Shown piece by piece: positions 58,113-59,653 of a stretch of 64,000 bases of DNA. A model generated the notes under the pieces. It was not told where the DNA came from and searched no databases. It worked only from the letters and a program-made list of their open reading frames with translations. The stretch is from Paraconexibacter algicola (GTDB taxonomy: Bacteria; Actinomycetota; Thermoleophilia; Solirubrobacterales; Solirubrobacteraceae). The stretch covers positions 434,001 to 498,000 of the forward strand of contig NZ_PYYB01000002.1 in assembly GCF_003044185.1 (NCBI RefSeq), read 5' to 3'. Numbering within the stretch: the stretch's first letter is position 1; each line of letters opens with the position of its first letter. The translations under genes were made by a program, and so were the position numbers.

Positions 58113-58880
58113 TCAGGCGTTGCGCGCGTGCAGCAGCCGCAGCCCCTCGAGCGTGAGCAGGTCGTCCTGCTCGTCGATCGAGCGGCAGTACGGCACGACG
58201 GTGCTGGCCAGCCCGCCGGTGGCCAGGACCGGCGCCGTCGCCTCGAGCTCCTCGTGGATGCGCTCGATCAGGCCGTCGACCGCCGAGGCGTAGCCGTAGA
58301 TCACGCCCGCCCGGATCGCCTCGACCGTCCCCTTGCCGATCGCCCGGCGCGGCGGCACGAGGTCGATCCTCGGGAGCTTCGCGCCGCGCGAGGTCAGCGC
58401 GTCCAGCGAGATCTCCACGCCGGGCATCAGGACGCCACCGACGTACTCGCCCTCGGCGCTGACGACGTCGAAGTTCACCGCCGTGCCGAAGTCGACGGAG
58501 ATGCACGGGCCGCCGAGCCGCTCGAACGCGGCGACCGCGTTGACGAGCCGGTCGGCGCCGAGCTCGCGCGGGTTGTCGATCTTGATCGGCATGCCGGTGC
58601 GGATCCCGGGGCCGACGGCGAGCATCTCGTGACCGAGGTAGTGCCCCGCCATGCGCACCCACTCGGGCTCCAGCTGCGGGACCGTCGAGGAGACGATCGA
58701 GGCGCTGAGGTCGGCTAGTCCGACCCCGCGCAGCTCGAGCAGGTTGCGCAGCGCCGCCCCGAGCTCGTCGGCGGTCGACGAGCGCACGGTCGCGAAGCGC
58801 CAGTGCTCGACGAGCTCGCCCTGCGGCGAGTAGGTGCCGAAGTGCGTCTGCGTGTTCCCGACGTCGACCACGAGGAGCAT
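58113..58880 (-). CDS. coaX: Type III pantothenate kinase
   Basis: A 255-aa ASKHA-fold kinase for the first step of CoA synthesis. ATP site VVDVGNTQTHFG, pantothenate-binding PNxxx region with GADRLVNAVAAF, and catalytic/adenosine part SVDFGTAVNFDVV. The ATG has TACTGT seven bases upstream, which overlaps the divergent gene's -10. Confidence 0.95.
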   Translation of the reverse strand: MLLVVDVGNTQTHFGTYSPQGELVEHWRFATVRSSTADELGAALRNLLELRGVGLADLSASIVSSTVPQLEPEWVRMAGHYLGHEMLAVGPGIRTGMPIKIDNPRELGADRLVNAVAAFERLGGPCISVDFGTAVNFDVVSAEGEYVGGVLMPGVEISLDALTSRGAKLPRIDLVPPRRAIGKGTVEAIRAGVIYGYASAVDGLIERIHEELEATAPVLATGGLASTVVPYCRSIDEQDDLLTLEGLRLLHARNA

Positions 58881-58903
58881 GAGGCCGACAGTATGCTCGC
58901 CCG
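58881..58903. promoter_or_regulatory. 23-bp divergent leaderless promoter with overlapping -10 elements
   Basis: Minus -10 TACTGT (58893-58888) and plus -10 TATGCT (58892-58897) share two base pairs. Each is six or seven bases from its own ATG. Any -35 contacts must lie inside the opposite coding sequence. Confidence 0.6.
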
Positions 58904-59653
58904 ATGCCGAACAAGCTCTTCATGATCGACGGCTCCCATCCGTGCGCGACGGTCGAACGCGCCCTGACGATGAAGGGCATCCCGTACAAGACGGTCGAGC
59001 TGGTGCCGCCGCTGCACGCGCCGGTCGCCAAGGCGCTCTTCGGCGTGCGCACCGTCCCGGCGATGACGTTCGAGGACGGCCTGAAGGTCAGCGGGTCCCG
59101 CGCGATCCTCGCCGAGCTCGAGCGCCGCGTGCCCGAGCCGTCGCTGTGGCCGACCGACCCGGAGCGCCGCGCCGCGGTCGCCGCCGCCGAGCGCTGGGGC
59201 GACGAGGTGTTCCAGTCGATCCCGCGGCGGATCCTGTGGCCCGCGTTCCAGCGCAACCCCAAGGCGCTGCCGTCCTTCACCGAGAACTCGAAGATCCCGG
59301 CCCCCGGCGCGGCGCTCGTCGCGGCCGCCCCCGTGCTGACGCGGATCGAGCGGCGGATGAACGGCGCGACCGACGCGGCGACGCGCGCCGACCTGCTCGC
59401 GCTCCCCGCGCACCTCGACCGCATCGACGCCTGGATCGCCGACGGCACGCTCGGGGGCGAGCCGCCGAACGCCGCGGACCTGCAGATCCTGCCGTCGGTC
59501 CGACTGCTGATGACGATCGGCGACGTCGCCCCGCTGATCGAGGGCCGGCCGGTCGCCGATCTCGTGCGCCGGGCGCTGCCCGCCATCGGCGGGCACGTCC
59601 CGGCCGGGACCTACCCGGCCGAGTGGCTGCCGGCGCCGGCCGCGGCGACCTGA
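58904..59653 (+). CDS. Glutathione S-transferase N-terminal-domain protein
   Basis: A 249-aa protein. The thioredoxin-like N-domain (DGSHPCATVERALTMKGIPYK, VRTVPAMTFEDGLKVSGSRAIL) contains a Cys at the position of the GST/glutaredoxin CPYC-type motif, then a helical C-domain. Thiol cofactor unknown. TATGCT six bases before the ATG. Its last 43 bases overlap the convergent hydrolase gene. Confidence 0.85.
   Translation: MPNKLFMIDGSHPCATVERALTMKGIPYKTVELVPPLHAPVAKALFGVRTVPAMTFEDGLKVSGSRAILAELERRVPEPSLWPTDPERRAAVAAAERWGDEVFQSIPRRILWPAFQRNPKALPSFTENSKIPAPGAALVAAAPVLTRIERRMNGATDAATRADLLALPAHLDRIDAWIADGTLGGEPPNAADLQILPSVRLLMTIGDVAPLIEGRPVADLVRRALPAIGGHVPAGTYPAEWLPAPAAAT

What the first reader, a model, noticed from the sequence alone, without database searches (positions are those of the whole stretch)
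58878..58906. Divergent coaX/GST promoter compressed into 23 bp with overlapping -10 boxes
TACTGT (minus) and TATGCT (plus) share two base pairs, each at leaderless distance from its ATG. Two polymerases could not occupy it together, so expression of the two genes should be mutually exclusive or alternate, with -35 contacts in coding DNA.
Basis: partly seen in the sequence, partly recalled or inferred. Interest (0 to 1): 0.55.

Follow-up and report, generated by a model that had tools for sequence, protein, structure and literature searches.

The report
Two genes sharing one two-way promoter
Two genes that face away from each other are separated by only 23 bases that read as one shared start signal for both directions, an economical but known kind of arrangement that recurs in this bacterium's genome and probably does not force the genes to take turns.

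Summary
coaX (minus, ATG at 58880) and a GST-like gene (plus, ATG at 58904) are 23 bp apart. TACTGT (minus) and TATGCT (plus) lie 7 and 6 nt before their ATGs and share T58892-A58893, forming ACAGTATGCT (ANNNTANNNT), the only such motif in the window. It fits a bidirectional promoter of the published 23-bp TSS class serving two leaderless genes.

It is not unique. In 2.4 Mb elsewhere in the same genome, 37 of 340 divergent pairs have TANNNT before both starts. Nine of the 37 overlap, in two registers only: TANNNTA (4) and ANNNTANNNT (5). Of 15 pairs 17-26 bp apart, 8 carry such a motif, against 10 of 603 control stretches.

The inferred consequence is weak. Two polymerases cannot sit there together. 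But of 90 coaX loci (own included) 44 have a divergent GST, 27 of the 38 with both -10s have them apart, and the compact state changes at least 9 times on the coaX tree. Published E. coli work found basal bidirectional promoters too weak to compete. Alternating expression is not supported. No start site was measured here.

The parts
58113..58880 (-). coaX, type III pantothenate kinase, 255 aa; first gene of a run coaX-dus-greA-lysS on the minus strand
   Evidence: ORF; Pfam PF03309 E 1e-65, and Dus PF01207 for the next gene; greA and lysS named by eye from translations, not searched
58904..59653 (+). GST-like protein, 249 aa
   Evidence: ORF; Pfam GST_N_3 E 4e-13, GST_N_2 E 3e-8
58881..58903 (.). 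whole intergenic region, 23 bp
   Evidence: sequence
58888..58897 (.). shared bidirectional -10, ACAGTATGCT (ANNNTANNNT)
   Evidence: sequence; only match in the window
58888..58893 (-). coaX -10, TACTGT, 7 nt before the ATG
   Evidence: sequence; leaderless peak from 6 nt in the same genome
58892..58897 (+). GST -10, TATGCT, 6 nt before the ATG
   Evidence: sequence; same peak
58892..58893 (.). the TA step used by both -10 hexamers
   Evidence: sequence
58880..58881 (-). predicted coaX transcription start (at or one base before the ATG)
   Evidence: inference from -10 to start spacing of about 7; not measured
58904..58904 (+). predicted GST transcription start (A of ATG), 23-24 bp from the coaX start
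   Evidence: inference from -10 to start spacing; not measured

Best explanation
The 23 bp are a bidirectional sigma-70-family promoter in which one TA step serves a -10 hexamer on each strand. Housekeeping RNA polymerase can open the same place in either orientation and start a leaderless mRNA at or next to each ATG, with start sites 23-24 bp apart. Only one polymerase can be bound at a time. At ordinary promoter strength this should not make the two genes alternate; each fires at its own low rate. It is one example of a genome-wide economical solution for divergent leaderless genes (registers ANNNTANNNT and TANNNTA), not a dedicated coaX/GST switch. Shown: the anatomy, its recurrence, and its instability in relatives. 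Inferred: transcription from both -10s, the start sites, and independence of expression.
For: Anatomy. Leaderless -10 peak in the same genome. Census of 2.4 Mb (another contig than the window's): 9 overlapping pairs, only in registers d=-1 (4) and d=4 (5). 8 of 15 divergent pairs 17-26 bp apart carry ANNNTANNNT or TANNNTA anywhere between the starts, against 10 of 603 control 23-mers, Fisher p 5e-10. The own genome has 8 sites of CATN{5,8}ANNNTANNNTN{5,8}ATG, this locus included, against 1 for the reversed pattern; at all 8 both ATGs open ORFs of 99 codons or more with GC3 0.95-0.99, and 15 of these 16 proteins match a Pfam family (the one without is 143 aa, minus side of L096). Published classes: divergent starts 18, 10 and 23 bp apart are the common ones in E. 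coli (PMC12825309). M. [quoted passage not shown] coaX has an [N]ANNNT 5-10 nt before its start in 78 of 90 loci (no control was run for this looser rule).
Against: No RNA data. The two hexamers are weak matches to TATAAT (3 of 6 and 4 of 6, counted by eye). The register preference can come from base sharing alone: among 113 co-directional leaderless promoters, a backward ANNNTA in the two shared registers occurs in 6 (2 + 4), and in registers 5 to 20 together in 2. Starts in the census come from a simple gene finder; 4 of the 9 overlapping pairs needed shifted starts. At C1:796881, one of the 8 pattern sites, the gene finder runs the minus gene through the site, so that pair is missing from the census although both its proteins match Pfam from near their N-termini. 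In relatives only 4 of 14 pattern loci checked have two clearly coding flanks.
Confidence: 0.82

Rival explanations
1. The overlap is a regulatory device: competition of two polymerases for the shared -10 makes coaX and GST expression mutually exclusive or alternating.
For: The steric argument holds for overlapping -10s. In E. coli, strong activation of one side can repress the other through polymerase competition (PMC12825309 abstract). Compact spacing occurs in 11 of 38 usable loci, own included.
Against: 27 of 38 loci with both -10s have them apart, including the two sister rows in the coaX tree (43 and 58 bp). The compact state needs at least 9 changes and is barely clustered (34 of 500 shuffles as low). 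46 of 90 coaX loci have no divergent GST by my rule. Basal bidirectional promoters showed little competition.
Confidence: 0.08
2. Two leaderless promoters that share bases only through sequence economy: one extra A turns an existing -10 into a two-way one. This is the same physical object as the best explanation with a neutral history, so its odds overlap with it.
For: Base sharing predicts the observed registers (control). The spacing of the pair drifts among relatives.
Against: Tight pairs carry the symmetric motif far more often than control stretches (8 of 15 against 10 of 603), though this is also expected if every leaderless gene needs its own -10.
Confidence: 0.45
3. Only one gene (most likely coaX) uses the site; GST is transcribed from a start inside coaX or its ATG is misplaced.
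For: coaX has a -10-like hexamer in 78 of 90 loci although 46 of 90 lack a GST partner, so coaX alone would explain its conservation.
Against: In relatives with longer spacing the GST has its own TANNNT 6-7 nt before its start (L002, L003, L005, L011, L032, L033; start choice there leaned towards a -10, but these starts are the ones that align with the window's GST start). Coding-only prediction gives the same GST start in the window.
Confidence: 0.1

Closest known systems
Bidirectional promoters with a symmetric -10 (Warman et al. 2021, known here only through PMC10268837 and PMC12825309; the 2021 paper is not held)
   Same: A shared -10 read on both strands; predicted start sites 23-24 bp apart, close to one of the three common classes (18, 10, 23 bp).
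   Different: Here both products are predicted leaderless, so the promoter fills the whole intergenic region; no -35 is visible; start sites are predicted, not mapped.
Leaderless genes with TANNNT about 12 bp before the start codon (Zheng et al. 2011, PMC3160421; passages seen)
   Same: First T of TANNNT 12-13 bp before each ATG; high-GC actinobacterial genome.
   Different: Two of them back to back sharing bases; the text of that paper has no occurrence of 'divergent'.
Juxtaposed divergent promoters of M. tuberculosis, e.g. the leaderless pair prpD/Rv1129c (Cortes et al. 2013, PMC3898074; figure legend passage seen)
   Same: Divergent pair, both leaderless, TANNNT promoters without conserved -35.
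   Different: The spacing of that pair was not checked here; mapped there, only predicted here.

Membership tests
Bidirectional promoter (Grainger/Wade definition) | -10 elements on opposite strands share bases | tested here: met
   T58892-A58893 belongs to both hexamers
Bidirectional promoter (Grainger/Wade definition) | Divergent TSSs 7-25 bp apart (definition in PMC10268837) | tested here: inconclusive
   23-24 bp predicted from -10 positions and ATGs; no mapped TSS
Bidirectional promoter (Grainger/Wade definition) | RNA produced in both directions from the site | not testable with these tools
   needs 5'-end mapping or in vitro transcription
Leaderless gene | TANNNT about 12 bp upstream of the start codon | tested here: met
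   first T 13 bp (coaX) and 12 bp (GST) before the ATG; same peak genome-wide
Leaderless gene | mRNA begins at the start codon | not testable with these tools
   no RNA data
Conserved regulatory coupling of coaX and GST | Overlap or spacing kept among relatives | tested here: not met
   11 compact, 27 apart of 38 loci with both -10s; at least 9 changes on the tree

The most novel reading that the evidence does not exclude
In Solirubrobacterales, back-to-back leaderless genes form a quantised class: they either share one symmetric -10 (19-20 or 23-25 bp between starts) or stand well apart, with few at intermediate spacing because two separate but colliding polymerase sites are disfavoured. In the 2.4 Mb census 2 pairs have register 5-28, where 12.75 would be expected from the 17 pairs at 29-60 (Poisson 3e-4); with unshifted starts alone 0 against 9 expected from 12 pairs. 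The limits 5, 28 and 60 were chosen after seeing the data.
Probability: 0.3. Interest if true: 0.5.

Novelty: new member of a known kind. Interest (0 to 1): 0.3.

Why it matters
It shows how small a divergent promoter region can be: in a leaderless-rich genome the intergenic region can shrink to the promoter itself. The set found here (9 pairs in the 2.4 Mb census, besides this locus) would allow a test, in one organism, of whether polymerase competition at a shared -10 ever matters for expression. The locus by itself is an ordinary example.

Tried and rejected
Cross-genome pattern counts as proof of register preference, rejected. In the same 61 genomes (own included) the sums were 186 against 33 for the reversed pattern for ANNNTANNNT (summed), 107 against 37 for TANNNTA (summed), 11 against 1 for register 7, 11 against 1 for register 8 and 18 against 2 for register 11; the last three were added by eye. 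Patterns with more fixed bases are rarer by chance, and one-sided leaderless promoters inflate the shared registers without touching the reversed control. Of 14 relatives' loci (those that one search gave as loci), only 4 (L179, L183, L184, L190) have two clearly coding flanks by a criterion set after seeing the table: both ORFs at least 90 codons, GC3 at least 0.85, GC3>GC1>GC2. All 8 own-genome sites meet the same criterion on the numbers. I therefore rely on the gene-based census.

Phylum-wide scan: 106 of 119 genomes have a match, but many genomes with high counts match the reversed pattern nearly as often (e.g. 38 against 38, 51 against 49), so it was not used as evidence.

A conserved coaX/GST regulatory unit, rejected. 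A -35-dependent promoter: no support.

Papers: I looked for leaderless bidirectional promoters in actinobacteria with searches (listings); one search (Thermoleophil- with leaderless) listed 2 papers, not opened. One search found 11 papers holding both 'leaderless' and 'bidirectional promoter'; I saw passages of two. PMC6283541 (Streptomyces filipinensis) maps a leaderless phoR next to a 'phoRP-phoU bidirectional promoter region'; the passages do not speak of shared -10 bases. PMC4512697 has the second term only in its reference list. The other nine were not opened, and most subscription papers are not held, so this is no claim that the combination is absent from print.

Rows dropped: of 93 genomes with a coaX match, 90 loci were read; G043, G085 and G096 were left out as broken or partial matches. 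'No divergent GST' means no alignment score of 60 or more to the first 75 GST residues within 700 bp on the opposite strand of the DNA held; a contig end or a more distant gene would be missed, and L019 and L074 look like partial cases. Of 44 loci with a divergent GST, 6 lack a -10 on one side by my rule; the tree counts these 6 as 'apart' (33 in all). Where several GST start codons were possible, preferred one with a -10.

Corrections made on re-reading: the register-11 sum is 18; one search used 16 pairs at register 29-60 where there are 17, so the Poisson value is taken.

Full report
What is there. The window comes from a genome of about 75% GC held as G000. A genome that the tools place in the same genus (G007, contig of 5,138,448 bases) has exactly the length of the Paraconexibacter antarcticus chromosome listed, and most GST relatives there are titled Solirubrobacterales or Solirubrobacteraceae. 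coaX (minus, 58113-58880) and a GST-like gene (plus, 58904-59653) are divergent with 23 bp between their ATGs. TACTGT on the minus strand and TATGCT on the plus strand share T58892-A58893. Together they are the ten-base motif ANNNTANNNT.

Is it more than chance? The motif occurs once in the 64 kb, here, although shuffled sequence holds 6.45 on average. TANNNT is a real start-linked signal in this genome: before 892 genes with free space upstream in 1.6 Mb it ends 6, 7, 8, 9 and 10 nt before the start 83, 68, 49, 38 and 20 times, against 0 to 5 at most other positions. So each hexamer stands where a leaderless -10 should. No -35-like hexamer accompanies either, as in M. tuberculosis, where TANNNT precedes 73% of primary start sites and no -35 motif was found (passages of PMC3898074).

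Is it special to this pair? No. In the own genome the pattern CAT-N5-8-ANNNTANNNT-N5-8-ATG has 8 sites, this one included, against 1 for the reversed pattern. At all 8 both ATGs open ORFs of 99 codons or more with GC3 0.95-0.99, and 15 of the 16 proteins match a Pfam family. I then called genes in 2.4 Mb of another contig by codon usage alone: 2065 genes, 340 divergent pairs, 37 with TANNNT 5-8 nt before both starts (starts allowed to shift by up to 12 codons). Nine of the 37 have overlapping -10s, and these fall only in two registers: TANNNTA (4 pairs, 19-20 bp between starts) and ANNNTANNNT (5 pairs, 23-25 bp). Two pairs have intermediate registers (11, 22); the other 26 are at 29 or more. 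Four of the nine needed shifted starts (summed shift 12, 7, 5 and 3 codons). With unshifted starts, 8 of 15 divergent pairs 17-26 bp apart carry one of the two symmetric motifs, against 10 of 603 stretches of 23 bp before co-directional genes (Fisher p 5e-10). The census misses at least one true pair: at C1:796881 the gene finder runs the minus gene through the site, while Pfam domains (DUF3817 on one side, ACT_7 and A9CJY8-like_N on the other) support two genes starting there.

These two registers correspond to the 18-bp and 23-bp start-site classes of bidirectional promoters described for E. coli (PMC12825309, Introduction; 18 bp explained in passages of PMC10268837). That equation of register with class is my own arithmetic (start distance = register + 19 with a 7-nt -10 to start spacing).

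A caution on the registers. Sharing bases makes these two registers cheap: from an existing -10, one further A makes the backward hexamer. Among 113 co-directional leaderless promoters, 2 and 4 already have a backward hexamer in these two registers, and 2 in all registers from 5 to 20. The registers therefore show economy, not selection for mutual exclusion. For the same reason the cross-genome pattern counts are not used as proof; of 14 such loci in relatives only 4 have two clearly coding flanks.

What relatives say. Of 101 genomes searched, 93 have coaX; 90 loci were read, the own one included. coaX has [N]ANNNT 5-10 nt before its start in 78 of 90. A divergent GST lies beside it in 44 of 90, and both -10s are found in 38 of these. 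In 11 of the 38 they overlap (20-26 bp; 2 shared bases in 3, 4 shared bases in 8, the latter with hexamers such as CATAAT). In 27 they stand apart (31-460 bp). On a coaX tree the compact state needs at least 9 changes and is little clustered (34 of 500 shuffles as low). The two rows that are sister to the window's coaX, 84-85% identical, have 43 and 58 bp. So both genes tend to keep a leaderless-type -10 of their own, while the overlap comes and goes.

How it most likely works. One polymerase at a time binds the shared -10 in one of two orientations and starts a leaderless mRNA for coaX or for GST. Whether that matters depends on occupancy. For five E. coli promoters of this kind basal activity was too low for competition, and interference can appear when one side is strongly activated (PMC12825309, abstract and one Results section). 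coaX is followed on the same strand by dus and, by eye from the translations, greA and lysS, a housekeeping run for which alternation with a GST would be odd (inference). I expect independent low-level firing.

Verdict. A well-formed bidirectional leaderless promoter by sequence, a new member of a known kind. The wider pattern in this genome is more interesting than the locus, and the apparent gap at intermediate spacing (2 pairs where 12.75 would be expected, limits chosen afterwards) deserves a larger test. It rests on one genome, and the coaX/GST spacings in relatives do not show it (7 of 38 lie at 31-39 bp).

Noticed in passing
own genome G000: C1:691450, C1:796881, C1:2636009, C2:25216, C3:307189, C4:313900, C6:62393 (loci L091-L094, L096-L098): Seven further divergent ORF pairs 22-25 bp apart with the same motif between two ATGs; by Pfam they include glyoxalase facing metallo-beta-lactamase-fold, radical SAM, thioredoxin facing alpha/beta hydrolase, and AMP-binding enzyme facing enoyl-CoA hydratase.
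   Followed up: partly
G000 C1:1-2,400,000: Divergent leaderless pairs are rare at intermediate spacing: 2 with -10 register 5-28 against 17 at 29-60.
   Followed up: partly
G003:C24:72272-72308 and G012:C82:11902-11938: A similar site with two separate -10s occurs in two genera together with an inverted repeat GGAGAAG...CTTCTCC between the two ATGs, which looks like an operator.
   Followed up: no
L014, L016, L022, L028, L036, L040, L042, L044 upstream of coaX: A second compact form: the two -10s share four bases (AGCATAAT, ACCATAAT or AGCATACT), giving about 21 bp between predicted starts, not one of the three common published classes.
   Followed up: partly
L019 upstream of coaX: By eye a GST-like N-terminus begins 25 bp from coaX with overlapping -10-like hexamers, but no GST match was scored, perhaps a decayed copy.
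   Followed up: no
G167, G203 (same phylum, unnamed): Genomes with a strong excess of the motif between ATGs over the reversed pattern: 68 against 18 and 42 against 8.
   Followed up: no
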